The notes beneath the pieces were generated by a model. It saw only the letters and a program-made list of their open reading frames with translations. It did no database searches and was not told where the DNA came from. Of a DNA stretch of 64,000 nucleotides, positions 6,578 through 63,584 are shown in pieces; within the stretch, counting starts at the first letter, position 1, and each line of letters starts with the position of its first letter. Source of the stretch: Pycnopodia helianthoides (taxonomy: Eukaryota; Echinodermata; Asteroidea; Forcipulatida; Asteriidae); contig CM063263.1 in assembly GCA_032158295.1 (NCBI GenBank), positions 11,976,974 to 12,040,973 on the forward strand, given 5' to 3'. The translations under genes and the position numbers were made by a program.

Positions 6578-6730
6578 CTAATTTGAATCCAAATGCCACT
6601 TTTGAAACCAGACAAAACATCTGGTGCGTATCAAGTAAAAGATTAGCTCAAACACTTCCAGGACTGTGATAAAAGAGAAGCCGATATAAAGTCCGATTGT
6701 TCCTCCCACATCACCAAAGAGACTTGTGCC
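6578..6730 (-). CDS. Copy A exon 28: TM2, selectivity filter and stop, intact
   Basis: 51 codons. [20 protein letters not shown], then [14 protein letters not shown] and a short basic tail ending HLDSN and TAG. The family consensus is (L)GGxxGLFxGxSxLSxxExxE. The filter triplet is Gly-Phe-Ser where most relatives have Gly-Ala-Ser or Gly-Ser-Ser. The C-tail is only about 15 residues and has no PPxY motif. Acceptor TTCTTTTAG. Confidence 0.94.
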   Translation of the reverse strand, partial: GTSLFGDVGGTIGLYIGFSFITVLEVFELIFYLIRTRCFVWFQKWHLDSN

Positions 6731-7910: not shown

Positions 7911-7986
7911 AGAGTAAGCTTCAATTTCTCGTGTCTCTTGATAATTAAGTTCCTCATAGAACACCTTCAGTCGAACCAGGTTTCGG
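7911..7986 (-). CDS. Copy A exon 27: pre-TM2 strand (VFYEELNY)
   Basis: Phase 2 to 0. [20 protein letters not shown], then IEAYS. L-x-V-x-Y/F-x-E-L-N-Y is the conserved wrist strand leading into TM2 in DEG/ENaC proteins. Acceptor ATATGCACAG, donor GTAAGTAA. Confidence 0.9.
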
Positions 7987-8533: not shown

Positions 8534-8604
8534 CTGATATCACTTGCTGTTCGGATTTTCTTCGTTCCGTCATTGATAAAGTGAATGTTTCGCAGAAGAT
8601 GCGG
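8534..8604 (-). CDS. Copy A exon 26: DEG/ENaC lower palm
   Basis: Phase 0 to 2. [20 protein letters not shown]. Position and phase place it between the WPS segment and the pre-TM2 strand, where the family has a variable helix. Acceptor TTTTTTCAG, donor GTAACGAT. Confidence 0.82.
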
Positions 8605-9230: not shown

Positions 9231-9288
9231 CATAAAAGATGTTGATGGCCAAACTGTCTGTGACACAGCGTACTCGTACAGACGATCC
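9231..9288 (-). CDS. Copy A exon 25: DEG/ENaC WPS segment
   Basis: Phase 2 to 0. [20 protein letters not shown]. The Y-x(n)-S-x(n)-WPS motif is diagnostic of DEG/ENaC channels just after the cysteine cluster. Donor GTAGGCTT. Confidence 0.9.
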
Positions 9289-9947: not shown

Positions 9948-10020
9948 TCGCACTGCTGTTCACAAGAACAGTTCAGCAAAAAGTTAACATGGAGATAGTT
10001 TATCATCTGCTTGCATAGAT
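9948..10020 (-). CDS. Copy A exon 24: DEG/ENaC NCSCEQQC segment
   Basis: Phase 1 to 2. [20 protein letters not shown], then EQQCE. C-x-CxxxC cluster matches the family's CxCxxxC before the wrist. Acceptor TTCATTTAG, donor GTAAGTAG. Too short to be found by open-frame length; supported by phase and motif. Confidence 0.88.
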
Positions 10021-10789: not shown

Positions 10790-10895
10790 CTTGCTTGGTA
10801 TCCAAAATTTTACATCGGTTCCCGTCTACTTCGATGGAGTCTGAACAGTTGCAGATTTCTTTGACCTTCTGAAGGTAGCAGACTCGCAAACAGCG
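10790..10895 (-). CDS. Copy A exon 23: DEG/ENaC cysteine-rich palm segment
   Basis: Phase 0 to 1. [20 protein letters not shown] and [12 protein letters not shown]. The CLRxCxQ...CxC pattern is the conserved disulfide ladder of DEG/ENaC ectodomains. Acceptor TTCTTGAAG, donor GTGAGTAA. Intact. Confidence 0.92.
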
Positions 10896-11985: not shown

Positions 11986-12102
11986 CTGTCTATTGTAGCT
12001 TGTGGTCTCCACTTTAACAATCTTTCCGTCTACAATCTCTGAGACAGTTGCATTTGGTAATTGGCATTCTCCATACGGCATTGGTTTGCGGCTTATCAAA
12101 TT
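11986..12102 (-). CDS. Copy A exon 22: DEG/ENaC PYGEC segment
   Basis: Phase 0 to 0, 39 codons. [20 protein letters not shown], ending TTSYNRQ. P-x-PYGxC is a family landmark just before the cysteine-rich palm region. Sequon NAT. Donor GTGTGTTA. Intact. Confidence 0.92.
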
Positions 12103-12668: not shown

Positions 12669-12832
12669 AAATTTGAGGCCGATGGAGGTGGCCGTGCCCG
12701 GTGAGATGTTGATACCCCGATCAGCTGGTGCAGGGGTGATGTCGTTGTTTGTGATAGCTACCCGGACACCAACCTCTTGACCATACAGACTAATGTATTC
12801 ATCCTCCTCAGTGTTTAAGGTCAGAGTAAGAC
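12669..12832 (-). CDS. Copy A exon 21: DEG/ENaC palm core
   Basis: Enters phase 1, leaves phase 0. [53 protein letters not shown]. It matches the family pattern of a beta strand, GVRV with a hydrophobic pair, P-x-P, and PGxxTSI before the next strand. Donor GTAAGAAA. Intact. Confidence 0.93.
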
Positions 12833-13808: not shown

Positions 13809-13918
13809 CGGACTGCTCGCCAGTCTGTGATGCATTTCTTCCTTTGCTTCCATTTGCCGCCTTATTAAAGGTGTAGCAATTACCATATTTGTCATCCTGT
13901 ATTTGTAAGAAACTATCA
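13809..13918 (-). CDS. Copy A exon 20: DEG/ENaC YGNCYTFN motif
   Basis: Enters phase 2, leaves phase 1. [19 protein letters not shown], containing the family hallmark YGNCYTFN. The acceptor CTGTTTCCAG was chosen over an internal ACAG because it has the better pyrimidine tract and gives the usual spacing from the preceding cysteine. Sequon NAS near the end. Confidence 0.92.
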
Positions 13919-14743: not shown

Positions 14744-15047
14744 TTGTTATCAAGGCAGTCGATCCCGTTGAAGCTGCACTGCAACACAAAATCCTTCAGT
14801 TGATGCCCGAACTTTGCAATCTCAGGTTTGGAGAGCTTCAAAACCTCGCTCAAATCGCTATAGTCCGGCAGCTCACTGAAAGTGATGAAGCGGCCCCAAT
14901 CGGCAGGGTCCTCGCTCAACACCCGACTGAACGGCCGATAGATGTAAAAGTTGTCTTTGAAATTGCTCAGAAATTCCTCCTCATTTTCACTGGGGATGAA
15001 CTGCATGAAAGGGTCCTTCCATGTTTCGTTTGAAAAGGGTCCGGCAA
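14744..15047 (-). CDS. Copy A exon 19: DEG/ENaC ectodomain, return to channel scaffold
   Basis: Enters phase 1, leaves phase 2. Opens [13 protein letters not shown] with an N-glycosylation sequon (NET), then an acidic stretch and [20 protein letters not shown], a close match to the DEG/ENaC segment GHxxxDFILxCxFxGxxC. This marks the right boundary of the cassette. Donor GTATGTAG. Intact. Confidence 0.93.
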
Positions 15048-15871: not shown

Positions 15872-16003
15872 CAATACTCGAACTGAAACAATCCTTTATT
15901 CTCTCATCTTCAAAATCTGGACAGTCCTTAATGGTGTCACACGCCTTTTCAGACTTGTAGCATTTACCATTATTACACTGCATGTAGCCCTCAGGACACG
16001 TCT
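15872..16003 (-). CDS. Copy A exon 18: LDLa repeat 9
   Basis: Phase 1 to 1, 44 codons. [38 protein letters not shown]: LDLa spacing with an FEDE acidic site. Last module of the inserted cassette; the next exon returns to the channel scaffold in the same phase. Intact. Confidence 0.92.
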
Positions 16004-17057: not shown

Positions 17058-17183
17058 CAGACTCCTCGTTGCAGAACCTTTCATCTGTTCCTCCAGGGCA
17101 GTTCGCGTAAACACCATCACATTCTTGATAAGGGTATATGCAGACTGATGAATTTCGACAAGCCTTCATTGTTGATATACACT
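17058..17183 (-). CDS. Copy A exon 17: LDLa repeat 8
   Basis: Phase 1 to 1. [37 protein letters not shown]: six cysteines in LDLa order with a GGTDE acidic end. One codon longer than copy B. Acceptor TTTTGAATAG, donor GTTAGTGA. Confidence 0.88.
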
Positions 17184-18475: not shown

Positions 18476-18596
18476 TGACTGTGCTGTCCTCACATTTCAG
18501 CTCTAACTCATCACTACCATCTTCACAGTCTGGGTAATTATTGCAGGTTTGCCAATGAGGAATACGTTCTCCGCTTTGAACACAAGAACTCATTTT
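18476..18596 (-). CDS. Copy A exon 16: LDLa-like repeat 7, frame-shifted
   Basis: Same module as copy B exon 16 but with one extra base near 18579 that breaks the frame after ENEFLC, plus an in-frame 3-base deletion in DELELKC. The LDLa end ([12 protein letters not shown]) is still readable in the shifted frame. Donor GTAAGTCC. Confidence 0.82.
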
Positions 18597-18952
18597 CTGA
18601 AAGTCAAAACATCAAGATAACCAAATCAAGCCTGACTAGTGATACTTCACTTCTCTTTCTTGAGCAATGTATGTTTTATCTTTTAGTTAGGCTGTTTTGC
18701 CATGAAAAGCCTTGAAATGAACCAATAGAAGTGTTCAATTTCCTCATACAGGTGCCCTTTACCAAGGAGAGAATGCGTTAGTTCCCCTATTCCACCTTTC
18801 TTGTATGCATATGTTGTTTAACTTTTCCTACCGGTTGTGGCAATTCCTGCTTGTCTCTTCTTCCTTGATGCTGTTACAAATGCAAAAAAGAAAAAGTATT
18901 TAAAACCCTGTATGAAATTTTAATACTATAGTTATAGAAGGGAATCACTCAT

Positions 18953-19881: not shown

Positions 19882-19987
19882 CTACGCAAGAAACGCCAAC
19901 ATCCATACTGTGACCAAGACCCTCTGATGCACTGACGACACGATAGTAACAGTCCACAAGGAATAATTCATGTCCAGTACACTTCAA
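19882..19987 (-). CDS. Copy A exon 15: SRCR domain, C-terminal part
   Basis: [20 protein letters not shown], then [10 protein letters not shown], completing the SRCR fold started in exon 14 (VFLSE joined to LKC aligns with the family's IWLDDVxC). The seventh canonical cysteine is absent, matching the absent second one. Enters phase 0, leaves phase 1; donor GTGAGGTT. Confidence 0.9.
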
Positions 19988-21421: not shown

Positions 21422-21630
21422 CTCGGACAAAAAGACACCACCTGAGCTTGGTGTGAAGCTGGTAGTCGTACTTGCTACCCCTGAGAAGCCCAGCTGGTTG
21501 CACACCACTTTTGCATCTTCTATTGTCCAATCGGCATCGGAGATGGTGCCCCATGTTCCATTGTGCTGTACCTCTACTCTACCCTCAGACGTACTTGCCC
21601 CGCCCACCAATCGGACAGGCAAATCCACAC
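21422..21630 (-). CDS. Copy A exon 14: SRCR domain, N-terminal part
   Basis: [46 protein letters not shown]: a scavenger receptor cysteine-rich domain. The usual Cys of WGTVC is Ser here. Enters phase 1, leaves phase 0; the domain is split by an intron and completed by exon 15. Intact. Confidence 0.93.
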
Positions 21631-21950: not shown

Positions 21951-22219
21951 CGTCGTGACAAGTTGAAGTCGGCTGTCCAACAGTACATAACTCCCAGTCA
22001 TCGGCGGTTGATGCTCCTTCCACAAAACACCAAGCACCTGCCCTCAAACCTCCGGGGTTACGGCAGGTTGATCCATGTAATTCAGGATAAACATCGCTAG
22101 TGAACCCAGCATTAACTGCTACGACCGTGGTCCAATTCGTGCATGATGCGAGCTTGATGTGATCCTGACATTACCGCGGTAATCTTGGGCATTTGGAGCT
22201 ATGTAGCACTCGTGGGTAA
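21951..22219 (-). CDS. Copy A exon 13: kringle domain, frame-shifted
   Basis: Whole kringle on a single exon: [36 protein letters not shown]. One base is missing at about 22149-22151 (relative to copy B), just before the second kringle cysteine, so the frame breaks in the middle and resumes visible kringle motifs in another frame. Acceptor TTTAAAG, donor GTAAGATA. Confidence 0.85.
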
Positions 22220-22946: not shown

Positions 22947-23081
22947 CTGCACAGGGTTCAGGGAAGCCGTTCATGTTGCTGCAAATGACATTGCCACTAC
23001 AAGCATAGACCTGAAAGTCCCCACTCACGTAATCAGGCACGGTGGGCACAAAATTGTTGAAGCAAGCCAAATAGTCAAACT
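22947..23081 (-). CDS. Copy A exon 12: unrecognised cysteine module, second half
   Basis: Phase 1 to 1, 45 codons. [39 protein letters not shown]. Four cysteines. The [10 protein letters not shown] core parallels [10 protein letters not shown] of exon 11. No family assignment from sight. Donor GTACGTGG. Confidence 0.8.
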
Positions 23082-49100: not shown

Positions 49101-52100
49101 ATCTCACTAGTGTTGACCTAGTAAGCAAATAAGTATTTCATAAAAACACACCACAGAACGGAACAAAACAAGCAAACCATTTTATGTGACGGTGTTTTTT
49201 TAACCGCAAGGTGAAGACTACATACTTGTTATCAAGGCAGTCAATCCCATTGAAGCTGCACTGCAATACAAAATCCCTCAGTTGATGCCCGAACTTTGCA
49301 ATCTCAGGTTTGGAGAGCTTCAAAATCTCCCTCAAATCGCTATAGTCCGGCAGCTCACTGAAGGTGATGAAGCGGTGCCAATCGGCAGGGTCCTCGCTCA
49401 ACACCCGACTGAACGGCCGATAGATGTAAAAGTTGTCTTTGAAATCGCTCAGAAATTCCTCCTGATTTTCAACGTGGATGAAGTGCATGAAAGGGTCCTT
49501 CCATGTTTCGTTTAAAAAAGGTCCAGCAACTAGAAAAATAAAGCGAAGGTTTCAGAGTGGATTGTCTCCAACTAAGATCCTGCCTCTAACCATATTTTGT
49601 TAAAGACTACATTGTATCAATGTTACAAAATAAGAGTTCAGATGGCTATTTCCCAAAGTAAGTTTTCTGTTGCTAAAATGACACCCGATTTGGGCGGTTG
49701 GGTTGGCGTAGTGTTATCTTTCCTCGCCTTCCACCTCAGGGACCCCAGTTCGAATCCCCCCCGGAGGCACTATGTAGATTGGGTTTTCAGTCCCTTCCTG
49801 ATTGTGTGTAACTTCCTCCCCCATACAAAAAAATGTAGAAACCCATTTTTTCTTCAGAATGATGTCATCATATTATGTTTTCGATGTTATAAATTTTGCA
49901 CTGGAATGGCAATTTACAGCATTTTAACGTGAGGTAAGAGACTTGAAATTTTTTCTTGACTGGGACTCGAACCCACATTCTCCTGATCAGAAACACCAGA
50001 GCGTGAGTCCGGTGTTCTTATCCGCTCGGCCACGACGCGCCATTGGGTCATTTACCTTCCTCTTGAAGGTAGTCATACTCACCAATACTCGAACTGAAAC
50101 AATCCTCTATTCTCTCATCTTCAAAATTTGGACAGTCCCGAATGGTGTCACACGCCTTTTCAGACTTGTAGCATTTACCATTATTACACTGCATGTAGCC
50201 CTCAGGACACGTCTCTGCACATAGGAACACAATCAAAACATATTTTTTATATTTCAGTTCGCAGTAACACTATGTTTATATATGAGTTTTGAGCCATTGC
50301 ATGGCGAGGTATCAATGCATATTTGGTAAGCGGTAACACCATTATATCTGCTTTGCTGTGTAGATTATGTTCTTTTTCATTTTCTAATCAAACCAATTAT
50401 GTAACCTAATTGAGAATATCAAGTAATTAACCAGGAGGGACACTGACTGGGTAAATAAATAAACATTTACTAGAGCAGGACTTGAACCTGCAACCTCCAA
50501 ACCAACATGCTGGCGCTCTACCAACTGATCTAATTAGCTCTAATGTTGGCGGTCTCTCTATTTATTTATTTATTTATTTATTTTGGTTTTTTTGGGGGGG
50601 TACCATTCAATCTAAAACTGCCACAAAATTCTCTGAGCCCTTTTTGTAACTTGAAAATTTGAACTATCAGTGCCATTTTGAACACAGGAAATGTGACAAT
50701 TAAAGACAGCTGCATTGTAAATGCTCTTTTAATGATCACAAACATGTCAAGAAGGTTGTCACTGAACATAAGAGTATAAAGCCTCATTTTATTTTTCACT
50801 AACCAGTCTTCTCGTTGCAGAACCTTTCATCTGTTCCTAGGGGGCAGTCCAAGTATTCATCACATTCTTGATAAGGGTATATGCAGACTGTGGAATTTCG
50901 ACAAGCCTTCATTGTTGATATACACTCTATTCAAAACAAACCACTCTTGGTTAAGTTATTTCAAGCCAATGGCTGTCGTTATTATCTTGTATTCTTTCTT
51001 TTTCATTCAATATTTTTAAACAATTCAACCCTTGCTTGGCCCTTAAGAGGTGCTCAAGGTGAGGGCTCAAGGTGAGGGCCCAAGGTGAGGGCTTAAGGTG
51101 AAGGATTAATTTAATTCAAGACGGAAAGTAAAAAAGTAAAGTTTGTTACTTTCTGTTAGTTTCCTTTCCATATCTATTTTGTTTACCTTTCTCATGTTTA
51201 ATAATATACTTCTGTTACAGTACCCTGTTTTTAATTTTGTATCTTTGTATTTTGTGCTGTTGCCCTGGTTTCAATTAATAGTCTGCACCATAGCGCTTAA
51301 AAATGTGTTGTTCAGCACGGCACAAATGTCCATAGGTTCCTCCCATCAGGGTGTTTGAGCGTGAAACCAGGCTTTCTGCTTCTTCTCACCCATACACTTT
51401 GCCGAGATGTTGAACAAAGAGCCATTCCAACAGCTTCACTCCAGGTCCTGCATCTCTTCGGAACTCCTTGCCCGGTGCATGTTTCCCTCCATCCTCCATC
51501 CTACAATCAATTCCTACCTTCAGCTCCCCCGAGTTATTTTCATCTGAAATGTTTTCTTCTTGTTGCCCCTTACCAAGGGTGGCTTTAGCCTTGTTTGGGG
51601 CAAACTTGAATTAAAAAAAAAAGGTATTCCCTATCCCCTCAAATTATTTTGGTTTAACAATTGTGGACTTACTGACTGTGCTGTCCTCACATTTCAGCTC
51701 AAAGTACTCGTCACTACCATCTTCACAGTCTGGGTAATTATTGCAGGTTTGCCAATGAGGAATACGCTCTCCGCTTTGACACAAGAACTCATCTTCTGAA
51801 AGTAAAAACATCAAGATAACCAAATCAGGCCTGATAACTTCACAGAGATAATTGCCTCTGTCGCCCCTGGTCATTGCCTTGGTGCCCCTTTGGCCCTTCC
51901 AAGGCAAAACAGCCCAAATTTGTTTTTTTTTTATGAAAGATCATTTCTGGGTAAATTGAGGGTGCTTCTTTCATTTCTGAAAGTTTCAAATTACAGTGTT
52001 ATGGTTTTGAATATAGCATGTCCTATATATTGGCCTCTTTTTACACTTTCTCCCTATTTTTTGTTTAATGGTAAACAGCTTATCTCTGTCTTGAGTCTTG

Positions 52101-55100
52101 TACTTTCTATCTTTTAGTTAGGCTGTTTTGCCATGAAAGGGCCGCCTTGAAATGAACCAAGAGAAATGTTCAATTTCCTCATTGAGGTGCCTTTCACCAA
52201 GGAGAGAATGCCTTAGTTCCCCTATTCCACCTTTCTTGTATGCATATGTTGTTTAACTTTTCTTACCGGCTGTGGCAATTCCTGCTTGTCTCTTCTTCCT
52301 TGATGCTGTTACAATTGAAAAAAAGAAAAAGTATTTAAAACCCTGTATGAAATTTTAATACTATAGTTATAGAAGGGAATCACTCATCAAGTGTCACAAT
52401 CGGGACTCGAACCCACACTCTGCTGATCAGAAACACCAGAGCTCGAGTCCAGCGCACTTGACCGCTCGGCCACGACACGCCACAAAAATAGTTCATGACA
52501 CACCACAACATTAGTTCATCAAGTAATCAACCACAAGGAAACTAACTGGGTAAATTTAAAATAATTTGGAGTTGAACAAAGAAAAATGGCTAGAGCGAGA
52601 TTTGAACCAACAAACTCCGAATTAACGTGCCGGCGCTTTCTACAGTAGCCGTATGTTGGCGGTCTCCCTATTTTGTCAATATCTCTGATCAGGGGTGCCG
52701 GTCAGAGGTCATACAACCTTAAACTGCCGTATAGCCTGGGATCACACCCAAGTATATGACACAACCTGGGAAGCTGCAGCCAGGGGATCACCTAAAGGGG
52801 TTCGAATCCTGCTCTAGTCAATTTTCCTTTGTTCAACCCCAACTCGTCCTTTTTATTTTTTGTTAATACACTCAGCCGGAGGCGCCAACCTCACCTACGC
52901 AAGAAACGCCAACATCCATGCTGTGGCCAAGACCCTCTGATGCACTGACGACACGATAGTAACAGTCCACAAGGAATAATTCATGTTCAGTACACTTCAA
53001 CTTTTGGAGAAAAAAACAGAGGGACACAAAAAAAAAGGTTTTGAGAAAAGTTTTACTGATGTTATACTGAATGCACAATTTGTAAACCCAAGGTATTTTG
53101 GTGAAATCTCACCAAGCTTATTTAAATGACGGGTAACTGTATCAAGGCAAGGATAAGTTCTTGAAAGGTGCGTAGTGACCGCTGACCAACAGATGAGACA
53201 TACAGTAACAAAACAATCCACAAGGTCACATTCACTTTTCTGATGCACTCATTTTCCAAACGTGGGGAACATTTTTCAAGTCTCTAAAACCTCACATTAA
53301 AATGATGTAAAATGCCATTTTATTTGATACTCTTTCAGAATGGAATTTGACATCAATGAACATCAAAAACACATTGGTCTATACATTCCAAAGAGGAATT
53401 TCTGTGCAAGTCAAATGTCAAATCCAATGTTGTTTCGATTGAATATCAACATTATTAAGGAAAGAACTTAAAATAATTCCTTGTACAAAATTGTAAAGAC
53501 CATCTTTTTGAAATGTGACGTCAACAATTGTTTGTGGATTATTATTGGACACAAAACTGCACTTAAAGGATATCAAACGATTTGGGACTTGTAACTTTTG
53601 TTTCACCATTGTCATAAGGACTCTTTTGGAAAATGAGTGGATCACAAAACTGACTTTGACCTTGGAGCCCCTCTTTAACAAATTGTCTGCAAGATCAAGA
53701 ACAAAATAAATACTCTATATTCTAATTGCAAGTGGATTCCTTTCAAAGGATTACCTCGGACAAAAAGACACCACCTGAACTTGGTGTGAAGCTGGTAGTC
53801 GTACTTGCTACCCCTGAGAAGCCCAGCTGGTTGCACACCACTTTTGCATCTTCTATTGTCCAATCGGCATCGGAGATGGTGCCCCATGTTCCATTGTGCT
53901 GTACCTCCACTCTACCCTCAGACGTACTTGCCCCGCCCACCAATCGGACAGGCAAATCCACACCTACAACAATAAAAAATACAGGCGTTGACAGTGAGTA
54001 AGCCCCGGCAAGCAACTGTGGTAACACCCGTGGGCAACCAGGTCCAACTTATTCAAATGAGCAAAGATACTGACAAAATATCACAGTCAATAGGGCGTTT
54101 TGGTGGCAGCAGACTTACATGTACCAGGTAAATCCAGGTAAACAATGGACATTTACCTGGTATGTCTGCTGCCTTCTAGCGTTCAAAAGTCTCCCATTAA
54201 ATAAATCCATGACTAACCTGGCATTTGCATAAAATGGTTTATCTTACCGTCGTGACAAGCTGTAGTCGGCTGTCCGACGTTACATAACTCCCAGTCATCG
54301 GCGGTTGATGCTCCTTCCACAAAACACCAAGCACCTGCCCTCAAACCTCCGGGGTTACGGCAGGTTGATCCATGTAATTCAGGATAAACATCGCTAGTGA
54401 ACCCAGCATTAACTGCTACGACCGTGGTCCAATTCGTGCATGATGCAGAGCTTGATGTGATCCTGACATTACCGCGGTAATCTTGGGCATTTGGAGCTAT
54501 GTAGCACTCGTGGGTAACTTTAAAAAAGAAAAAGAGAGTGACGACAAGGAACTAATTTTATTTGATTAATTGTGTCCGTGTGAGTAGGTATATACATCTT
54601 GCCATGTCGTGGTCGAGTCGGACTCAAGCTCTGGTGTTTCTGATCAGCTGAGTGTGGGTTTGTGTCCCGCGGTTGTGTCCTTAAGCAAGATACTTTACTA
54701 TAATTGCTTTGTCCTTTGGATGGGACATTGAGCCAAAGGTCCCGTGTACTAGGAATGGTAGTGCACGTAAAAGAACCGCGAACACTTATCATGGGTGCTG
54801 AGTAGGGGTGTACCCCTGTGTTTCTGATTCACATAGCAAGCATCCTAATGTTAACAAGATTCCTCAGGCTTGCGAGCTACAGTGACTAGGTTCACTTATG
54901 AGGCATCCTTGTTTTCATTACCAGAAATATATCAATCAAACCGGGACCTATAACAAAGTAGGGTCCCCAGTTGGGTGACAGTCCCCAATTGGAAAGTTCA
55001 TACAAATCCAATGGGAGCTGGTGCCAAAAAGTGGAAGCAAAAGCAAAAAGAAGAATGTGAACAACTACCTTCTCTCTCTTCATTTTTATTTTGTTTTATT

Positions 55101-58100
55101 TTTTTCTTGAAGCCTTCACCTCGAGTGGCCCTTTGGACAATTTTTCATAACAAAAATAAAGGAAAAAAAAAATAAATAAAATTGAGCGGAGCCATTTTTC
55201 TCCCACGTACCTGCACAGGGTTCAGGGAAGTCGTTCATGTTGCTGCAAATGACATTGCCACTACAAACATAGAACTGAAAGTCCCCACTCACGTAATTAG
55301 GCACGGTGGGCACAAAATTGTTGAAGCAAGTCAACGACTCAAACTCTGAAAATCAATTGATAAAATTGCCATATAATACAAACTACAAGTACATGTAAGT
55401 GCAAGCTATAAAGGCTAATGACATCATTATTAAACTTTTCAAGGGGCACTGTCATTGTGATTATAGTCTGCTTGTGGCTTAGTCTTGATTGGCGACGTTC
55501 ATTTTGTTTAATGTAGTGCGATGTGGCAACACGAATTACCGTCCGCAACACGAATTATTGGAGAAGAGATATATCCCACGAACATCTGGATCATTCGATC
55601 CAGATTTATAGACTTGCCCAGTCCTTCTGAGTCAGCCTCCCAAACAGTCAATGTAGCGCCCTCTACCGGTGGCTAATACAAAAAACAGCATCGCCAATCA
55701 AGACTACTTGTGGCTGGACATCCCAGTTACTTGACCGTCATATTTGACCGCTTGACCGTCACATCACAAACAACAGCTTTAGAGGGCGCCGTCATAATTA
55801 TCTCGCCCGCATGTGCAGTAACTGGGTGAGAGCTCAGAATTGAATGTCTGGCCACAGACTCGCTGCAATCACGACGCCAGTGCCCCTTTCATGTGAGAGA
55901 ATGAAAGGAAGAGATTTTTTAATAATAATGGTATTTTTAAAGGTATTTCTTCGTCTTTTAAGAGATTTCATTTCAATCCTCAATCTTTCAATAAACAAAG
56001 GTAAAAATCAGCTTTCTGAGTAAAAATACAGCAATATTTTTTACTTTGTTCAGCTCTTTCTTCTTATAAGAAATCAATCAAGATTTAGTGCCCAATTATC
56101 TTACATGCAGAAGCGTCTTTGATAGATAAAATGGTAAAGCAATTTAGTTTACAACTAATAAGCTTTGATTTAGAAAATAAAATCCATATATTGACCAATC
56201 ATTTACTTGTTTAATGTGTTAGACTAAAGGTTAAAGGTATTATACAGGATTGGTAGAATTGACAAAATAGTCGCAGACAGTGTTCATGTTTTGTGTGATC
56301 AACCATACATATAAAATAATAAACCTGTGAAAATTTGGACTTAATCCATTGTGGGAGTCAAGAGAAAATAGTGAGAAACGATGCACTTCATTTGTAACAA
56401 CCAAAATCAGCTGTTGCGTTCTTTTATGTTTTCCGATACAGTTTTCTCGACTATGACTTCATTTCAGAGGGACATAATTCACAGAAAAAAATGGTTCTGG
56501 TATGAACTTCATAATCAGTAAGCTTCAAGACTAAAATTAAACAATGATGTTTTTTATTCTTACCAATCCTGTATAATACCTTTGAGGCCAGAGTGAAATG
56601 TCCGAAATACTTACTTGTGTTATCGATGGTGTTAAAGCCCTGACTTTGATTTGCTGAAATTGATCCACTACATACGAGTTTCTGGGACGAGATAATCGAA
56701 TCACTAATCTCTGCATTCTTAAAGAGTGTGCATGCTGGGAATGCAATAAAAAAGATTGTACATAGTTTTACTGTTCAGGAATTGTATTTGTTGTTCTTTA
56801 AGATTAAAGGGACACTGTCGTCGTGATCATAGTCTGCTTGTGTTGCGTGGACAAGGAAACATGAACTCTCACACAGTTACTAAGCGCGGGCGTGTTGACC
56901 GTCATATCACAAACAAAAGCTTTAAAGGGCACCGTCGTTTTTTTAATGCAGTAACTGTGTGAGAGTTCAGAATTTAATGTCTGGCCACAGACTCGCTGTG
57001 ATCACGATGACATTACCCCATTAATCCTTTTTAAGTATTGCAGTCATCAAAAGTTTAAAAAAGAAAAGAAATAGAAAGAATGTGTTTTTTTATGATAAAT
57101 GTTCGTATACAAAAAGAAAAGGACAATCACAACAAACAAAAACATTTTGAACATTTACAGTTTTCAATAAAATTTATAAAATAGAACATTTTTTCTTCAG
57201 GGCCTAATTTCATAGAGCTGCTTGAGCAGAAAATAGTGCTGAACAATTTTCTGCTAAGCAGAAATCAGTAGGATACCAGTCACAAATTGTACATGTGACC
57301 TGGGGTCGATTTCACAAAACTCTTCCTAACTTCTCTTAGCATTGCCTAGGACTAGTCCTAAGTTAGGAAGAGTTTTGTGAAATCGACCCCTAGTAGTTTG
57401 GCAGGTAACTTTATTCTGGTAAGCATAAGTTTTTAGTGCCAAGCTACTTTTTGTGCTTTTAAAGCAGCTCTATGAAATTGGGCCCAGGTTGCTCAGATGA
57501 CCTCCCCCCCCCCCCGGCAACCAACAGTGTGATTATTTTGTCAATGCTTACTGCAGTTTTGTTCATCATCCGCTTCCAAGCAATCGACGTTCAAGTCACA
57601 AAGGAAATCTTCATAGATGCATTGCCAACCGTTGCCACACAGCCACTGACCGTCCTCACACCGTGTTTTCCCATACTGCATGTCATCTGGATCAGTAAAT
57701 GTAAACAGTTGAAATATCAAATAATAAACCACAAGGGAAACTGACCTGGGTAGTAAGAAGTAACTATAACTATAAATAGTAGTAGTAAACTTGCGGGTAA
57801 CAACCATGTGTAAAATCTCTTTTGGGAGGAGTGTTGGCTCTGAGAAGAGCCGGTTTGGTCTCGACGTTTCGAACAGTATACTCTGCTCGTCTTCAGGAGA
57901 ATTGAGCCAACACTCCTCCCAAAAGAGATTTTACACATGGTTGTTTCCGCAAGTTTATAGTTATAGTTACTTCTTACTTTCAACACCATGCAAAGCTTCA
58001 AACACCACTGACCTGGGTAGATTTGAATTCATTTTGGGTTGAACAAAGAAAAATTGACTAGAGCAGGACTTGAACCAACAACCTCCGGATTAACGTGCCA

Positions 58101-61100
58101 GCTCTCTACCAACTGAGCTATCTTGCCCTATGTTGGCAATCTCCCTATTTTGTCAATACCTTTGATTAAGGTACCAGTAAGAAGCCATACAACCGTAAAC
58201 TGCCGCTTAGCCAGGGAACAAACCCAAGTTTACTATACAACCTGGGAAGCGGCAGCAAGGGGATCACCTTAATAACGGGGTGCAACTTTTTCACATCAAA
58301 TATCAAGTGTACAAACAGTTGAGTTGCAGGGGGTGTGTGTGTGTCACCACCGACAACACCTGAGTCAGCGTACCACAGTACCATGTATTGGTTTACATAG
58401 TACCATGTATCGGTTTACAAGGTGCTGCACTGGAAGGGTATCGAATACAATGGCAATTTACACCATTTTAACTTGAGGTTAGAGACTTGTAACTTTTTCC
58501 CCCACTCACGCGAGGACTACATCTATTGGAAAATAAATATTTGTTTAATTTTCAAAAATTGGGGGCAGGATTGTTGTTACCTCTGCCACACAAAGTGGCG
58601 TCTTCATCGCTGTTATTTTCACAGTCCGATGCACCGTCACATACCCAATCTTTGTATATACAAGAACCATCACCACAGTCAAACATGTCCCCTGCACATG
58701 CTGGCGCTGGTGCTTCAAACACAAGGAGAGAACAAAATTAATCTTAGAAAACATGCAAGCAAAAGTGAAACCCAAATTGTACCTTTTATTCCGAGGAAAA
58801 AGACTTAAGGAGGTATTGTGTGTTGTTCGAGCAAGCTGTCATGTCTCGTCATTAGAGATGTAAAGGTAGAGTCAGAGATTGGTAAATACTTCAAATGTAA
58901 AAACTAACTTTGGTGAAAAGCACTGCAGCTGTTGATAGTATAAACTATTTTGAGAAAGGGTTCTCTTCGAAGTAATATGGTTTCTTTGGTGAGAGACAAA
59001 GATCGGAAAGAGATAAGTGGCTCTCTTGGCCTTTTGTCATGTTTGTGTGTAAACTCCAGGCTTGCCCAGATGTATTTTCCTGTTAAACGTAGTCTAGTAT
59101 CCAATCTCCCAGTGAGTCGGATGATTGCCACCCTCTTGGTCATGTTCCCTGTATCCAACAACAGTAACAAATGCTAATATCCACAAAAATCAAATGGAAC
59201 CAGACAATTTTTGTTTCTTCTTCCAGCCTCGGTTTGGTTACAATGATTTGAATTGGATTAAAAATCAAGATGGCCACACTAAAGGTCTAAGGGGAAAGAA
59301 GGAGCGTGGCTTACTCGAGGGAGCCATGTTTGCTGCGCAAGCCTCCTCAGTCTCATCTTCGCCTGCACGGCAGTCATTGTCTTTGTCACACACAAAGGCC
59401 AAAGGTATACACCTAGTGCCATATACACTGTTGGTTTCGCACTGGAACCCGCCTGTACAACTCTCATCAAAATCTGCAAGACAAATTTGCGGAATAAATT
59501 TAAAGCATGCATAATGTCAAGTCCCTCCAAGTTTATAGTGAGTGGTGACGCTGGGGGGGGGGGGAGGGGGAATTTTCCCAGCAGAGGATACAACATGGTG
59601 AATGCAGCATCAAATTTGACATTTACTTTAACTTTATACACCTTTTCACTATTCAGGAAACAGAGGCAAGGCCTTATGTGAACCAGAAACATGGGGTTAA
59701 CCCCTACTCTTCCACGATAAGTGTTCTGGGTTTTTTTACATGCCCAACCAATCCTAGTGCACAGGACTTACAGTTTAATGTCCCATCCGAAGGACAAAGC
59801 AATTATTGTTGAGTACCTTACTCAAGGACACAAGCGCCACAACCGAGACTGGATCACCCACACTCCGCTGATCAGAAACACCAGAGCTCGAGTCTGGGGT
59901 CCAAACCGCTTGACCACAACACCGTCTTTAACAATGGGGCAAAAAAATCTTACCACAGTCGGTTTCATCACTGCCATCAATGCAATCCGGACTGTTGTTA
60001 CATCGCTTTATTTTAGGAATACATCCTCCTTTTGTGCATTGGAACTCAGAAGCCTTGCATTCTGCGTTTAAAAGTAAAAACAGATGGCAATATTATACAA
60101 ATATTGAATGCATGGGAGTGCATTGTCGCAGAATAATTATTATCTTGAAGTGAAATCTGGACTAGTCTGTTTCACAAGGCCAAGCTGAGTGAAATGGAAA
60201 AGCCAGATTTCACCGAGTGATTATATTCTGCAAAAACACACAAACGAAATACATTTGTTGTTTTATATAATTAACCAAGACCGTGGTGTTTGCGTGATCA
60301 CACACAACGTTAGTAATGAATAAACATAGAGGGCGCTGTGTAATTGTGTTCCCCGGATCCAGATCCAAAGGCACCCTCGCATGCCTGCTTTTCGATCACG
60401 TTGTAGCCGTGTCCTTTCGCTATTCAGCTTCTCAGCTGCTAGTAAGGATGATTAGCCTCCCAAATTATTATAATTAATATAATACACAGGGCTTTAATTG
60501 ATTGGTTCGGGTGGATGTGTACTTACGGCACCCTGTCTCATCGTCCTGATCGTAGCAATCATTTTTACGGTTGCATTTGAGGGTCTTGCTAATGCAGAAT
60601 CCAGAGGCACTACCATTATTACATTTGAACTCAGTCGCCTCATCACAGCTTTCTGTTTAAAAGAGAAAAATCTAAATATAAAAAAGTAGTTTTTTTATAC
60701 ATGTATATATATATTTTTTTAAATGAAACATCGCCTAACTCACAAGGCCAGACAGCCACTTCAAGGTGAGGGCTACTGCTGGAGTCAAATACCAGAAATG
60801 CTGAAGAGCAGAGAGAAAGTCAAACTGTTTCTTATTCGATTTCTCATGATATTTTTGGTCCATTTTTATGATTCAATGTTGCTCTCATAGTAGCATTTAA
60901 CACTTTTTCCAAATACTTCACATCATAAACAAGAACCTGTGACATTTGTAGATATTTGTTTCAGAAAACTCACAGGCAGTGCCACCCTAAACCACGTGTT
61001 TACACCTCATGAACTTTTGATCAGATAAAAAAGATTGTGGCGAAAACTGCTCTTTCCCAAACCAGTGAGTACCGACCTTAGTTTGTACATGGTTTGTCTT

Positions 61101-63584
61101 AGGCAAACTCAGGTCTGCTTTTAATGGGTGATTCACGTCTGTAATTTTGAGTATTTTTTTAAGCATCCTCTCTCAGCTGCTTTCTACTTCTTCAGAATGT
61201 TCTTTGCAAGTCCTCTTTTGAGATTGCCGAGATGAGTAAGTTACTCACCATAAGTACACATCCCTTCATCGCTGAAGTCTCCACAGTGGTTGATTCCATC
61301 ACAGAGTAAGAACCTCTTCACGCACAGTGAGTTGGACGCACAGCTGAAATCGTCCTTTAAGCAAGGTGCTTCATTAATGTGGCAAAATAGAAATTGGTTA
61401 AACTCACCCAGTAAATGGGCTTAATTCATCAAAAATATTGGATGTACAATATCTGTGTTTTCAGCAGTTTTTGTGGAAGACGTTGTTCCTTACCACTCTA
61501 ATATTGCAATTCCCCCTATCCACACACTGTACACAAACCGTCAAACAATAGCGGGCACTGTTATGAAAACTTGAATTATTCCATCGAACAACTGGTTTGT
61601 GGCTTTGCTCGTTCCCAGCGCCTCATTTGAAGACCCTGGGATGGGCATTGGACTATTCCCCCGCAGACCTAGTAACCCCGATCACCTCTTCCTGTTTTTT
61701 GCAAAAGATTTGACTATCGATAATAATGTAGCTCTATCGTGTAAATCCATTGCAAGTGATTCTTGTCATTCTTTGCCTTGTACAATCGTTCCCATCATGC
61801 ATCACTACATCCTGAACAAGAATTTGTACAAGCTCATCAGCCCATCCCAGCGGTCTTGGATATGACAGAAGTTTGCGACAGCTACTTCTATTTTCTAATG
61901 TATTTTAGGAATGAAAACAAACTCAAGTCAAAGGGAAGGCTGGGGACAGTTCATTCTTTGTTGTTGCCCCGAAATTGTGGACCAAGCTGCCTTGTGCTAT
62001 CAGGGAAGCGGCATCTACTGCCACCTTCAAGCGCCAACTCAAAACTCACATAGTTCCCAGCTTACGATCTCTTGTTTTAATGTTTGTTCTTTTCTTGTGA
62101 GGCGCTGAGTTCTTTGCTCTGTATTATTAAATTACAGTCGTTGTGTAACCTTTTCGACTTACCATAATAAGGCAGTGTTTGTCCCTTGTCTATTATTAGG
62201 GCCTCTTTGTATCTGGACAAGGCAAGGGCAGAATGGCGAATCTTATTGGTATTGCAAAGCGTGACAGCTGGGAACCTCAGTTCTGATCTTGTTACTATCT
62301 TGATCTAGAATCGATTCAGATATAAACAGGTGATTTAGCCAAGGTCAAAAACACTGAAAATGCATACACGTTGTCAATATTTGCATCTTCATGCACTCAG
62401 GGAGATTTTGTTCAACAATAAGGGAGATATTTAGAATAACATTCACCAAAACATGGACAAAGTTTCCATACTCAGGGAGATTGTCAGAACTTGGAAAGAT
62501 GGGTTTAGTTTCGGGGAACTTTCTGCAGAATCAGGAAGAGTTGGTGGCTCTGCATATACATGTGCCTGTAAAACATACATAGATCTACCCTATTCCAGGG
62601 ACCTGTTTGGTTGCAACGCCCCTGTGGTACATTGTCAGTACATGCTTCTCAGCTTATTCCGTAGGTTAAGAGGGTTTGTTTTGCATTATTTCAACAATTT
62701 TTTTGAAATATGTCATCATGTGCTGACAGCGGCCCTCACTGCAGGGTTGATATTGGATGAGTGAGTACATAAATGGTATGGAAGTGTTACTTCAGAAAAA
62801 AAAAACTAAAACACATGTACTGCAGCGTTCTCCAACATGAAAAAAAAGCTTCGCGCACCACCATGCTTTCTGTGTCACCTGTCACACTTAAGATGTGGCC
62901 AGCAAATCTGTCAGCCACGTTTTCTTCCCCCACTTTTATTCAAGATCATGCATTTCAGACTTCAAATGCAATCTTGGAAACCTTCGCTCAAAGAAGTCAG
63001 GAAGAAGTGGCCATCAGCTCAGAGTGCATCACCATGACCACAGAGCATGTACAATCAAAAGTTGTCCGGGCCCTTAGGCAGGCCCCAAACCCGACGCCGT
63101 TAAAGGCTTTGTGCTTTGCGCTCACCAATTTTAATATTAATAACAAATATCAAAAAATTAGTCTGACGTAATTATTACACTCACCTCAACAGAAACAGGA
63201 TACATGTAAAATCTCTTGATCAAGATACTGGCCTGCCATACGAAGACGGTAATGGCTGCCAAGAAAATGAGCGTCCACAACAAACGTCCAAGGACAGATG
63301 TGGCTTTGAATATATTTGGCAAGCCATGAGCTGATGAGACGTCCGTTGCAAAGGTCTTGACTGTCTTGTACACACTCTCATTTTGTAAAGGCTTTGGTTC
63401 GCCATCGTCCTTTGGCCAAGTGCGTCTATCCCGGTCAAAGTGGGGTGACGATATCACAGCTGGATACCCCCCATAATCTTTTTCATCCCGATGGCGGCGC
63501 CGTTGGTCATCGTATTGTCTGGGCTTATGCTGAGGCCTTTCTTGGCCATAGTAAGACTTCGGCTCTCTGTCCCACATCTCATAT
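42955..63584 (-). CDS. Copy B: mosaic DEG/ENaC channel gene, coding exons 3-28 (5' end outside window)
   Basis: Second tandem paralogue with the same exon order and phases as copy A. Exons 3 to 27 are open in frame with consensus splice sites. They encode the cytoplasmic segment, TM1, nine LDLa repeats (one cysteine-poor), an unrecognised cysteine module, a kringle, an SRCR domain and the channel finger, palm and wrist segments. The final TM2 exon has a 1-base deletion relative to copy A (GGG to GG, near 43080), which replaces the selectivity filter with an unrelated frame and an early stop. Coding exons 1 and 2 should lie right of position 64000. Family knowledge predicts amiloride-sensitive or ligand-gated sodium permeation; that is not shown by sequence. 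If the deletion is a sequencing error, this is the better candidate for a working gene. Confidence 0.75.
43170..43300. repeat. Short version of the CTTGGTCACTT minisatellite, last intron of copy B
   Basis: Seven or eight units of the same 16-17 bp repeat as copy A 6808-7575. It marks the presumed pre-expansion state or a contraction. Confidence 0.9.
43597..43672 (-). CDS. Copy B exon 27: pre-TM2 strand (VFYEELNY)
   Basis: Residues 1250-1275. Protein identical in reading to copy A exon 27. Intact. Confidence 0.9.
43700..44290 (+). repeat. Array of four tRNA-like units with 21-bp linkers, copy B intron 26
   Basis: Four near-identical 68-bp units at 43807-43874, 43938-44005, 44090-44157 and 44221-44288. 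Each starts CTCGGCGGTCTAG (A-box-like) and contains GGTTTGAATCCCACC (B-box-like) and CCGAG that pairs with the 5' CTCGG. Linkers are 21-bp units of GATACCGGGCAATCTCGTCA. Probably tRNA pseudogenes or a tRNA-derived satellite. The presumed anticodon stem CTTT/AAAG has an 8-base loop, so function as a tRNA is unlikely. Confidence 0.8.
44510..44580 (-). CDS. Copy B exon 26: DEG/ENaC lower palm
   Basis: Residues 1227-1250. Same as copy A with INEGTKK and ASEI. Intact. Confidence 0.82.
45480..45537 (-). CDS. Copy B exon 25: DEG/ENaC WPS segment
   Basis: Residues 1207-1226. [20 protein letters not shown], donor GTAAGCTT. Intact. Confidence 0.9.
46206..46278 (-). CDS. Copy B exon 24: DEG/ENaC NCSCEQQC segment
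   Basis: Residues 1183-1207. Same segment as copy A with [13 protein letters not shown]. Acceptor and donor consensus, intact. Confidence 0.88.
46520..46625 (-). CDS. Copy B exon 23: DEG/ENaC cysteine-rich palm segment
   Basis: Residues 1148-1183. Same as copy A with [14 protein letters not shown]. Intact. Confidence 0.92.
46924..47040 (-). CDS. Copy B exon 22: DEG/ENaC PYGEC segment
   Basis: Residues 1109-1147. Same segment as copy A with [15 protein letters not shown]. Intact. Confidence 0.92.
47632..47795 (-). CDS. Copy B exon 21: DEG/ENaC palm core
   Basis: Residues 1054-1108. Same as copy A with few substitutions ([26 protein letters not shown]). Intact. Confidence 0.93.
48764..48873 (-). 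CDS. Copy B exon 20: DEG/ENaC YGNCYTFN motif
   Basis: Residues 1017-1054. Same as copy A with one Asn for Ser change (NGNKGRNAS). Intact. Confidence 0.92.
49226..49529 (-). CDS. Copy B exon 19: DEG/ENaC ectodomain, return to channel scaffold
   Basis: Residues 916-1017. Same module as copy A with [19 protein letters not shown]. Some replacement changes in the acidic stretch (for example HVENQEEF for PSENEEEF). Intact. Confidence 0.93.
50083..50214 (-). CDS. Copy B exon 18: LDLa repeat 9
   Basis: Residues 872-916. Same module as copy A with [18 protein letters not shown]. Acceptor CTATGTGCAG, donor GTGAGTAT. Intact. Confidence 0.92.
50465..50580 (-). repeat. Degenerate tRNA-Asn-like unit, copy B intron 17
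   Basis: CTAGAGCAGGACTTGAACC, GGCGCTCTACCAACTGATC and GTTGGCGGTCTC show the family, followed by a TTTA microsatellite. Not present at the matching site in copy A (about 16370). Confidence 0.65.
50804..50926 (-). CDS. Copy B exon 17: LDLa repeat 8
   Basis: Residues 831-872. [36 protein letters not shown]. Six cysteines, intact frame. Confidence 0.88.
51053..51105. repeat. Short GAGGGCTCAAGGT run, copy B intron 16
   Basis: Three to four 13-bp units corresponding to the 668-bp array of copy A. Flanks on both sides match copy A. Confidence 0.88.
51673..51795 (-). CDS. Copy B exon 16: LDLa-like repeat 7 (four cysteines)
   Basis: Residues 790-831, phase 1 to 1. [27 protein letters not shown], then LKC. 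Has the DGSDE calcium motif, but only four of six LDLa cysteines: the first and third are missing. In the LDLa fold these two are disulfide partners, so the loss is a matched pair. Confidence 0.85.
52895..53000 (-). CDS. Copy B exon 15: SRCR domain, C-terminal part
   Basis: Residues 755-790. [20 protein letters not shown] and DVGVSC. Intact; same cysteine pattern as copy A. Confidence 0.9.
53755..53963 (-). CDS. Copy B exon 14: SRCR domain, N-terminal part
   Basis: Residues 685-754. Almost identical protein to copy A exon 14, with the observed base changes mostly silent. Acceptor TTGTTGTAG, donor GTAATCCT. Confidence 0.93.
54248..54517 (-). CDS. Copy B exon 13: kringle domain
   Basis: Residues 595-685, 90 codons, phase 1 to 1. 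Six cysteines in kringle order: ECY, SCTNW, TCRNPGG, AWCF, WELC, ACHD, with the YRG and CRNP signatures typical of plasminogen-type kringles. Kringles bind lysine-containing or other protein ligands; the ligand here is unknown. Intact. Confidence 0.9.
55211..55345 (-). CDS. Copy B exon 12: unrecognised cysteine module, second half
   Basis: Residues 550-595. Same module: [39 protein letters not shown]. Intact and highly similar to copy A. Confidence 0.8.
56615..56734 (-). CDS. Copy B exon 11: unrecognised cysteine module, first half
   Basis: Residues 510-550. [14 protein letters not shown] and [16 protein letters not shown]. The first half differs from copy A at many residues while the [10 protein letters not shown] part is kept, which points to constraint on the second half. 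Intact frame and splice sites. Confidence 0.75.
57303..57390. mobile_element. Short palindromic MITE nested in an older MITE, copy B intron 10
   Basis: GGGGTCGATTTCACAAAACT and its inverse AGTTTTGTGAAATCGACCCC bound about 88 bp with a nearly perfect hairpin (CTTCCTAACTT versus AAGTTAGGAAG region). Copy A lacks it at about 24690. Confidence 0.85.
57552..57686 (-). CDS. Copy B exon 10: LDLa repeat 6
   Basis: Residues 465-510. [37 protein letters not shown]. Six cysteines, intact, same length as copy A. Confidence 0.92.
57754..58006. mobile_element. Inverted-repeat (foldback) insertion with 14-base target duplication, copy B intron 10
   Basis: ACTGACCTGGGTAG occurs at 57740-57753 and again at 58007-58020; copy A has it once at the matching site (about 25049). 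Between them, arms of about 85 bp (TAAGAAGTAACTATAACTAT and its inverse) flank a 50-bp centre at 57850-57900 containing a hammerhead-like motif on the minus strand. A non-palindromic 30-bp tail (CTTTCAACACCATGCAAAGC) follows. Confidence 0.75.
58030..58270 (-). repeat. Single tRNA-Asn-like repeat unit, copy B intron 9
   Basis: tRNA-like part at about 58057-58128 with several changes (AGGACTTGAACC, CAGCTCTCTACC) and the usual CTCCCTATTTTGTCAA flank. Counterpart of the 25020-26560 array in copy A. Confidence 0.78.
58581..58712 (-). CDS. Copy B exon 9: LDLa repeat 5
   Basis: Residues 421-465. Same module as copy A; small substitutions ([26 protein letters not shown]). Acceptor TTTGAAG, donor GTAACAAC. 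Intact. Confidence 0.92.
59315..59473 (-). CDS. Copy B exon 8: LDLa repeat 4
   Basis: Residues 368-421. Same module and length as copy A with six cysteines and the acidic GEDE site. Donor changes to GTAAGCCA after CTCGA. Intact. Confidence 0.93.
59954..60061 (-). CDS. Copy B exon 7: LDLa repeat 3
   Basis: Residues 332-368. Same LDLa repeat with [10 protein letters not shown]; differs from copy A at only a few codons (for example EASEF-type change near the acceptor). Intact frame. Confidence 0.94.
60527..60652 (-). CDS. Copy B exon 6: LDLa repeat 2
   Basis: Residues 290-332, identical in layout to copy A exon 6: six cysteines, DQDDE acidic site, acceptor TTTAAACAG and donor GTAAGTAC. Confidence 0.93.
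61249..61368 (-). CDS. Copy B exon 5: LDLa repeat 1
   Basis: Residues 250-290; phase 1 in and out. Contains six cysteines in LDLa spacing, including [25 protein letters not shown] and a final MC. The acidic DFSDE end is the usual calcium-binding signature. First module of the inserted cassette; acceptor ATTAATGAAG. Confidence 0.92.
62163..62298 (-). CDS. Copy B exon 4: palm strand 1 (FPAVTLCN)
   Basis: Residues 205-250. The same coding sequence as copy A with no coding difference seen. Enters phase 0, leaves phase 1. Acceptor is the AG in GATCAAG just upstream of ATAGTAAC; a less likely acceptor a few bases further in would lose the frame. Confidence 0.9.
63185..63584 (-). CDS. Copy B exon 3: HG motif and TM1, intact
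   Basis: Residues about 71 to 204 of the composite protein. A hydrophilic cytoplasmic region ([18 protein letters not shown] and on) leads into [10 protein letters not shown] with the His-Gly gating pair at about 157-158. TM1 spans roughly 168-188 ([20 protein letters not shown]), and the segment ends [10 protein letters not shown], the usual DEG/ENaC exit from TM1 into palm strand 1. Acceptor TTCGACAG, donor GTGAGTGTA; ends in phase 0. This exon alone places the gene in the DEG/ENaC family. Confidence 0.93.

What the first reader, a model, noticed from the sequence alone, without database searches (positions are those of the whole stretch)
6578..63584. A DEG/ENaC channel with an LDLa x9, kringle and SRCR cassette built into its ectodomain
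Seen: one exon chain, in frame over 28 exons, joins HG motif and TM1, FPAVTLCN, LDLa/kringle/SRCR modules, [11 protein letters not shown], and a G-x-S TM2. The channel parts come before and after the modules, so this is one protein, not neighbouring genes. Known: DEG/ENaC ectodomains are usually 350 to 450 residues and are not known to me to carry LDLa, kringle or SRCR domains. Inference: a sodium channel whose gating may be tied to binding of lipoprotein-like, protease-like or microbial ligands. This is the strongest candidate here for an undescribed system.
Basis: partly seen in the sequence, partly recalled or inferred. Interest (0 to 1): 0.92.

Follow-up and report, generated by a model that had tools for sequence, protein, structure and literature searches.

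The report
Starfish sodium-channel genes with receptor modules
Starfish carry ion channels of the epithelial-sodium-channel family whose outer part is swollen by a cassette of sticky receptor modules with a likely cutting site, and this stretch of DNA holds two damaged tandem copies of such a gene rather than one giant gene.

Summary
The architecture is real; the coordinates are not one gene. The window holds two tandem minus-strand copies (B 63613-42955, A 33796-6578), each of 27 exons: a split DEG/ENaC (ASC) channel around nine LDLa modules, a small Cys-rich module, a kringle and an SRCR. A has four net frameshifts; B has one, before TM2. An intact third copy (C, 33 exons, 1584 aa, cassette doubled) lies left of the window; a diverged paralogue keeps the order 10.6 Mb away. 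Orthologues stand unnamed in Asterias, Acanthaster and Patiria. A furin-like R-X-K/R-R site follows the SRCR (or kringle) in 11 of 11 starfish proteins compared. The insert falls in the finger interval that holds vertebrate ENaC's protease-cut GRIP region. Brittle-star, crinoid, acorn-worm and amphioxus channels carry other modules there; on an insert-free tree the ambulacrarian ones form one clade (100/99). Best reading: a convertase-processed channel with a modular, ligand- or matrix-binding finger; gating is untested. Ten paper searches found no description. New variant of a known kind.

The parts
63185..63613 (-). Copy B exon 1: cytosolic N-terminus, HG motif, TM1 (conserved start Met near 63577)
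   Evidence: Pfam ASC N half
62163..62304 (-). Copy B exon 2: RFPAVTLCN and start of finger; ends in phase 1
61249..61368 (-). Copy B LDLa1 exon (phase 1-1)
60527..60652 (-). Copy B LDLa2 exon
59954..60061 (-). Copy B LDLa3 exon
59315..59473 (-). Copy B LDLa4 exon
58581..58712 (-). Copy B LDLa5 exon
57552..57686 (-). Copy B LDLa6 exon
56615..56734 (-). Copy B X module, first exon (unclassified, Cys-rich)
55211..55345 (-). Copy B X module, second exon
54248..54517 (-). Copy B kringle exon
   Evidence: Pfam Kringle 43.4 bits against a cut-off of 34.3
53755..53963 (-). Copy B SRCR, first exon (phase 1-0)
52895..53000 (-). Copy B SRCR, second exon (phase 0-1)
52267..52305 (-). Copy B 39-nt exon with furin-like site RKKR
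51673..51795 (-). Copy B LDLa7 exon (four Cys)
50804..50926 (-). Copy B LDLa8 exon
50083..50214 (-). Copy B LDLa9 exon
49226..49529 (-). Copy B first channel exon after the modules ([12 protein letters not shown] ... [12 protein letters not shown])
48764..48873 (-). Copy B YGNCYTFN exon
47632..47795 (-). Copy B channel exon [16 protein letters not shown]
46924..47040 (-). Copy B channel exon [11 protein letters not shown]
46520..46625 (-). Copy B Cys-rich channel exon
46206..46278 (-). Copy B Cys-rich channel exon 2
45480..45537 (-). Copy B WPS exon
44510..44580 (-). Copy B channel exon after WPS
43597..43672 (-). Copy B channel exon VFYEELNY
42955..43106 (-). Copy B TM2 exon, net -1 frameshift near 43083
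33366..33796 (-). Copy A exon 1 / TM1, net +2 frameshift
31873..32014 (-). Copy A exon 2
31087..31205 (-). Copy A LDLa1 exon, net -1 frameshift
30362..30487 (-). Copy A LDLa2 exon
29803..29910 (-). Copy A LDLa3 exon
27771..27929 (-). Copy A LDLa4 exon
26662..26793 (-). Copy A LDLa5 exon
24861..24995 (-). Copy A LDLa6 exon
24001..24120 (-). Copy A X module, first exon
22947..23081 (-). Copy A X module, second exon
21951..22219 (-). Copy A kringle exon, net -1 frameshift
21422..21630 (-). Copy A SRCR, first exon
19882..19987 (-). Copy A SRCR, second exon
18832..18870 (-). Copy A exon with RKKR
18476..18596 (-). Copy A LDLa7 exon, net -2 frameshift
17058..17183 (-). Copy A LDLa8 exon
15872..16003 (-). 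Copy A LDLa9 exon
14744..15047 (-). Copy A first channel exon after the modules
13809..13918 (-). Copy A YGNCYTFN exon
12669..12832 (-). Copy A channel exon TLTLN
11986..12102 (-). Copy A channel exon [11 protein letters not shown]
10790..10895 (-). Copy A Cys-rich channel exon
9948..10020 (-). Copy A Cys-rich channel exon 2
9231..9288 (-). Copy A WPS exon
8534..8604 (-). Copy A channel exon after WPS
7911..7986 (-). Copy A channel exon VFYEELNY
6578..6730 (-). Copy A TM2 exon with G-F-S, open to its stop

Best explanation
Shown by computation: a tandem array of starfish genes codes for DEG/ENaC-type channel subunits in which a cassette of LDLa x6, a Cys-rich X module, kringle, SRCR, a furin-like site and LDLa x3 sits between the first palm strand/start of the finger and the rest of the ectodomain. 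Copy C is intact; copies B and A, in the window, are damaged as assembled. The same insertion point carries other modules in brittle star, crinoid, acorn worms and amphioxus.

Inferred: the subunits assemble as a trimeric cation channel. The cassette occupies the place of the ENaC GRIP region, the finger segment whose cutting changes gating there. A proprotein convertase cuts once after the SRCR on the way to the surface, so the mature subunit has two chains: TM1 with six LDLa, X, kringle and SRCR; and LDLa7-9 with the rest of the channel and TM2. With one site, no inhibitory fragment need be released; instead the opened loop leaves two arms tied to the two sides of the finger, and binding or pull by a secreted or matrix ligand on these arms moves the finger and so the gate.
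For: Intact 33-exon, 1584-aa chain in copy C, all GT-AG. Pfam ASC split around the modules. Order kept in D at about 40-60% identity per conserved exon and in starfish orthologues. Between copies C and B the channel core and kringle+SRCR evolve under constraint (dN/dS 0.43 and 0.43) while LDLa3-6+X change about four times faster at non-synonymous sites than the core (Fisher p 8e-15) at equal synonymous rate (p 0.61). R-X-K/R-R just after the SRCR, or after the kringle where there is no SRCR, in 11 of 11 starfish sequences, and the only such motif of the ectodomain in 10 of 11 (chance per linker 0.005-0.027); D has one too. Insert falls between gamma-ENaC residues ~110 and ~249, which hold the furin (138) and prostasin (181) sites; GRIP lies between finger helices alpha1 and alpha2. 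G-F-S in TM2 kept. Ambulacrarian modular channels one clade, 27 rows, 100/99.
Against: No transcript, protein or current was seen. A and B are both broken in the assembly, so of the array only C is shown open. The whole cassette and nearly every module exon could be skipped in frame. dN/dS above 1 in LDLa3-6+X (1.47) is not significant (p 0.23), and this group of exons was chosen after a first look at the data. ENaC activation needs two cuts; the starfish modular proteins show one site. P0025 has a second motif inside LDLa3. The fold prediction failed, so the place of the insert rests on sequence alignment alone.
Confidence: 0.55

Rival explanations
1. The main product is a plain channel: the cassette exons are skipped in most tissues, and the modular form is minor or a by-product.
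For: Exon 2 ends and the post-module channel exon begins in phase 1; all module exons are phase 1-1 except the two SRCR exons, which are so as a pair. P0005, named isoform X2 by its source, lacks LDLa2 that P0004 has.
Against: Module exons are conserved in order and sequence across starfish, kringle+SRCR with dN/dS 0.43 and LDLa1-2 with 0.07 between C and B; public gene models hold the full chain.
Confidence: 0.15
2. A receptor or scavenger protein that kept the channel parts as a membrane anchor and no longer conducts.
For: Size and number of modules; fast-changing LDLa3-6+X.
Against: Channel core constrained (dN/dS 0.43), TM2 G-F-S and the Cys pattern of the ASC ectodomain kept in all nine public starfish proteins aligned.
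Confidence: 0.15
3. A decaying array: copies are pseudogenes and nothing here acts.
For: Copy A has four net frameshifts and copy B one.
Against: Copy C is open over 33 exons; even A against B shows dN/dS 0.43 in the core, so any loss is recent, or some shifts are assembly errors.
Confidence: 0.08
4. The copies are an assembly artefact (both haplotypes laid in a row) or a gene-model fusion.
For: Tandem, similar copies; frameshifts as in error-prone assemblies.
Against: dS 0.064 (A-B) and 0.087 (C-B) over the exons scored; copy C differs by a doubled cassette; the architecture recurs in independent genomes, so fusion is excluded for the architecture, if not for the copy number.
Confidence: 0.07

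Closest known systems
Vertebrate ENaC alpha and gamma subunits with GRIP domain
   Same: ASC fold by Pfam; insert between the same flanks of the finger; convertase-type site inside the insert
   Different: GRIP is a small beta-strand segment with two cuts that free an inhibitory tract (passages); here 600-1060 residues (insert lengths: 615 to 1060) of receptor modules with one conserved site. Orthologue scores lie under NCBI's ENaC cut-off.
Plain ENaC-like channels of echinoderms and acorn worms (e.g. P0054, P0116, P0125)
   Same: Nearest relatives on the core tree; same insertion point; shared intron positions after the insert as far as tblastn ends show
   Different: Insert without Cys modules, often Gly/Ser-rich, with one or two furin-like sites
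Amphioxus and acorn-worm channels with F5/8C, kringle, PAN, CUB, TSP1 and LDLa (P0034, P0045, P0053)
   Same: Modules at the same insertion point
   Different: Other module sets; no furin-like motif in most of their inserts
Type II transmembrane serine proteases such as TMPRSS2 (LDLRA and SRCR; domain content from a reference title)
   Same: LDLa and SRCR in one membrane protein
   Different: No trypsin domain in copy C
LDL-receptor-related proteins (name given by sources to P0004, P0025, P0026)
   Same: LDLa arrays
   Different: No YWTD repeat (PF00058) in copy C at E 0.001; two channel halves instead

Membership tests
DEG/ENaC superfamily | ASC domain, both halves, above the curated cut-off | tested here: met
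   Copy C 243 bits, B pieces 163.6 and 73.5 bits, cut-off 23.6
DEG/ENaC superfamily | HG motif before TM1, FPAVTxCN after it, G-x-S in TM2 (motifs recalled) | tested here: met
   [18 protein letters not shown] (B) / FPAVTICN (C), GFS
DEG/ENaC superfamily | Trimer that conducts Na+, amiloride block | not testable with these tools
   No expression possible
ENaC proper (TIGR00859) | Score above NCBI's subfamily cut-off | tested here: not met
   Orthologue P0001 279.3 and P0005 268.6 bits against 428; window proteins themselves not scanned
ENaC alpha/gamma, GRIP type | Two convertase/protease sites flanking a released tract | tested here: not met
   One site at the SRCR exit in 11 of 11; a second motif, within LDLa3, only in P0025
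Nematode-type degenerin (TIGR00867) | Score above cut-off | tested here: not met
   207.2 and 262.1 bits against 598.45
ASIC | Proton gating, acidic pocket residues | not tested
   Not examined
LDL receptor / LRP | YWTD beta-propeller with EGF modules | tested here: not met
   Only ASC, LDLa, SRCR, Kringle found in copy C at E 0.001
Type II transmembrane serine protease | Trypsin domain | tested here: not met
   Absent in copy C
Ambulacrarian modular ASC clade (named here) | Core groups with other modular channels; insert at the same point | tested here: met
   27 rows, 100/99; cores end and resume at the same profile places

The most novel reading that the evidence does not exclude
The finger insertion point of DEG/ENaC channels was an exon-shuffling hot spot in early deuterostomes: one founding event made a family of channel-receptors whose finger arms (LDLa, SRCR, kringle, CUB, TSP1, PAN, HYR, F5/8C) sense secreted, matrix or microbial ligands, with proprotein-convertase processing as part of gating, so that protease-controlled DEG/ENaC gating is older than vertebrates.
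Probability: 0.3. Interest if true: 0.87.

Novelty: new variant of a known kind. Interest (0 to 1): 0.74.

Why it matters
It would join two protein worlds kept apart so far in what I could search: ligand-binding mosaic receptors and DEG/ENaC ion channels. It puts a large natural series of inserts at the very place where ENaC is controlled by proteases, so the question whether that place is a general control lever becomes testable by cloning intact starfish, acorn-worm or amphioxus members. Gene models are already in public databases under names such as 'LRP2-like' or 'uncharacterized', so the family is easily overlooked.

Tried and rejected
Rejected: one 57-kb gene (two copies); an extra exon near 60313-60417 (frames not kept between copies); gene-model fusion (the architecture recurs in other genomes). 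A starfish-only origin: the second search found modular relatives in other phyla and classes. A firm single origin that includes amphioxus: not shown; support 92/45 and 96/68, and a tree with all ambulacrarian modular and plain rows together is not rejected (p-AU 0.417). A single clade of all 11 starfish modular rows has only 58/15. Positive selection in LDLa3-6+X: not significant.

Full report
What is there. The window lies on contig C21 (13.26 Mb) of a 479-Mb genome. blastn of the right part of the window against the left shows two tandem copies of one region, and a tblastn of exon peptides over the window plus 60 kb to the left and 30 kb to the right finds three copies, all on the minus strand: B (63613-42955), A (33796-6578) and C, left of the window (C21:11974685-11940442), and no fourth in that stretch.

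Gene model. Each window copy has 27 exons: N-terminus with HG motif and TM1; RFPAVTLCN; LDLa1-6; two exons of a Cys-rich module that I call X and could not classify; kringle; SRCR in two exons; a 39-nt exon with RKKR; LDLa7-9; then ten channel exons to TM2 with G-F-S. All introns of the three models are GT-AG. Module exons are phase 1-1, the SRCR pair 1-0/0-1, and both exons that flank the cassette meet it in phase 1. Copy C has 33 exons and 1584 aa, with the six exons LDLa6, X, X, kringle, SRCR, SRCR doubled; the two cassette copies are 96.5-97.9% identical including introns.

State of the copies. B is open to the TM2 exon and has a net -1 frameshift there; A has net +2, -1, -1 and -2 in four exons. 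Whether these are real or assembly errors I cannot tell. Copy A's kringle is also missing from the genome-wide kringle list of 20 matches, which does hold the kringles of B, C (two) and D. Non-synonymous to synonymous rates, C against B: channel core 0.43, LDLa1-2 0.07, kringle+SRCR 0.43, LDLa7-9 0.62, LDLa3-6+X 1.47; A against B: 0.43, 0.00, 0.20, 0.65, 0.92 (TM2 exon left out; the grouping was made). The excess of change in LDLa3-6+X over the core is strong (p 8e-15), a value above 1 is not shown (p 0.23).

A diverged paralogue. At C21:1324166-1300694 matches to TM1, RFPAVT-like, six LDLa, kringle, SRCR, three LDLa and the channel exons through TM2 follow in the same order, at 47% (E1), 47% (E2), 56% (LDLa1), 41% (first channel exon), 61% and 59% (later ones) identity, with a furin-like stretch RLRRRR between SRCR and LDLa7 and the same phase-1 junction after exon 2. 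I made no full model of it.

Relatives. A search with a copy C protein (one cassette left out by mistake) gave 24 proteins at E 1e-10; the five with ASC are all starfish: Asterias rubens, Acanthaster planci (two), Patiria miniata (two); the rest match the LDLa arrays. A search with P0003 gave 94 at E 1e-12; by my count 44 bear ASC in the tool's precomputed domains, 42 of them with a further extracellular domain: nine starfish, then Amphiura, Anneissia, Saccoglossus, Ptychodera, Glandiceps, Branchiostoma and one ostracod. Scans of eight of them confirm LDLa, SRCR, HYR, kringle, PAN, CUB, TSP1 and F5/8C (in P0001 and P0005 Pfam does not report the kringle at E 0.01). A third search with a plain relative gave 133 at E 1e-20, 120 listed. 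Own profiles of the two core halves place the insert at the same point in nearly all modular proteins with both halves; in 147 proteins both halves were scored.

Tree. Cores only, insert left out, 75 rows: the 33 rows with ten or more Cys in the insert are one side of a branch, support 92/45, in 90% of 200 bootstrap trees; the 25 plain ambulacrarian channels beside them are 100/100. After taking out seven long rows, two of them modular: 31 rows, 96/68, 97%; the 27 ambulacrarian modular rows 100/99; starfish modular rows 58/15; grouping of all ambulacrarian modular and plain rows against amphioxus not rejected, p-AU 0.417. One origin within Ambulacraria is well supported; a shared origin with amphioxus is open. 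No vertebrate ENaC or ASIC was in the tree.

Insertion point. The N half matches gamma-ENaC to residue 110 and ASIC1 (4nyk) to 111; the C half starts at gamma 249, beta 231, ASIC1 165. The human gamma furin and prostasin sites, 138 and 181 (passage, PMC8791634), lie between. ENaC's GRIP region lies between finger helices alpha1 and alpha2 (passages, PMC6197857). Two plain paralogues in the same genome have no intron at the insertion point, and their later exon ends coincide with those of the modular genes as far as tblastn ends show.

Furin-like site. Over the whole ectodomain, R-X-K/R-R stands just after the SRCR, or after the kringle in P0004 and P0005 which have no SRCR, in 11 of 11 starfish sequences (nine public ones from three species, plus B and C); in ten it is the only one, P0025 has a further one inside LDLa3. 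An earlier count in a 67-residue window saw 9 of 11, because P0003 and P0025 have an extra LDLa there. Most other modular inserts (acorn worm, brittle star, amphioxus) show none, a few show one to three, so the site is a starfish feature of the modular channels. In plain relatives 23 of 43 Cys-poor inserts hold at least one motif against 0.7 expected by shuffling, and 9 of 43 a pair 8-40 residues apart against 0.0 (related sequences, not independent).

Function. The working model is given under Best explanation: channel and order shown; cleavage, trimer, ligand and gating inferred. PMC8791634 (passages) holds that sites for protease activation arose in vertebrate ENaC; the starfish sites and the paired sites of sea-urchin channels make a wider or parallel history worth testing.

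Literature. Ten searches were answered; none of the listings names a DEG/ENaC protein with LDLa, kringle or SRCR inside it. In the two surveys looked into by word, PMC9949801 and PMC10148893, the words kringle, LDL and scavenger do not occur. The library lacks most subscription papers.

Scores. Known fold, known modules, a new and repeated combination at a meaningful place: new variant of a known kind, interest 0.74.

Noticed in passing
P0125, P0127, P0128, P0129 (sea urchins), P0117, P0118, P0123 (starfish), P0054, P0119; found: Plain ENaC-like channels carry paired furin-like sites in the finger insert; in the four sea-urchin proteins P0125, P0127, P0128 and P0129 they flank a similar tract of about 20 residues (IPDP core), like the double cut of vertebrate alpha-ENaC. 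9 of 43 inserts have such a pair, 0.0 expected by shuffling.
   Followed up: partly
C21:11974685-11940442, left of the window (L009-L012): Copy C has a recent internal doubling of six exons (LDLa6, X, kringle, SRCR), 96.5-97.9% identical including introns.
   Followed up: yes
window 25430-26556: Tandem array of 316-bp units (3.6 copies, 99% matches) with four tRNA-Asn calls, inside the intron between LDLa5 and LDLa6 of copy A.
   Followed up: no
window 6810-7582, 17272-17940, 10166-10627: Long arrays of 16-, 13- and 44-bp units in introns of copy A; a shorter 16-bp array also lies in copy B (43169-43291).
   Followed up: no
C17:12961265-12998448 (L001-L005, L008): Cluster of ASC genes with little or no intron: two matches cover the whole ASC profile in one open frame.
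   Followed up: no
P0001 and P0027 (Asterias rubens): Both list a source record of the same length, 14,514,366 bases, so array orthologue and D orthologue probably share a chromosome in Asterias as they share C21 here.
   Followed up: no
L021 4783-5118: Plain starfish channel with a Gly/Ser-repeat insert that contains RKRR at the same insertion point.
   Followed up: partly
P0091 (ostracod Darwinula): The one protostome hit with ASC and LDLa; odd layout, N half only partly matched. May be independent or a faulty gene model.
   Followed up: no
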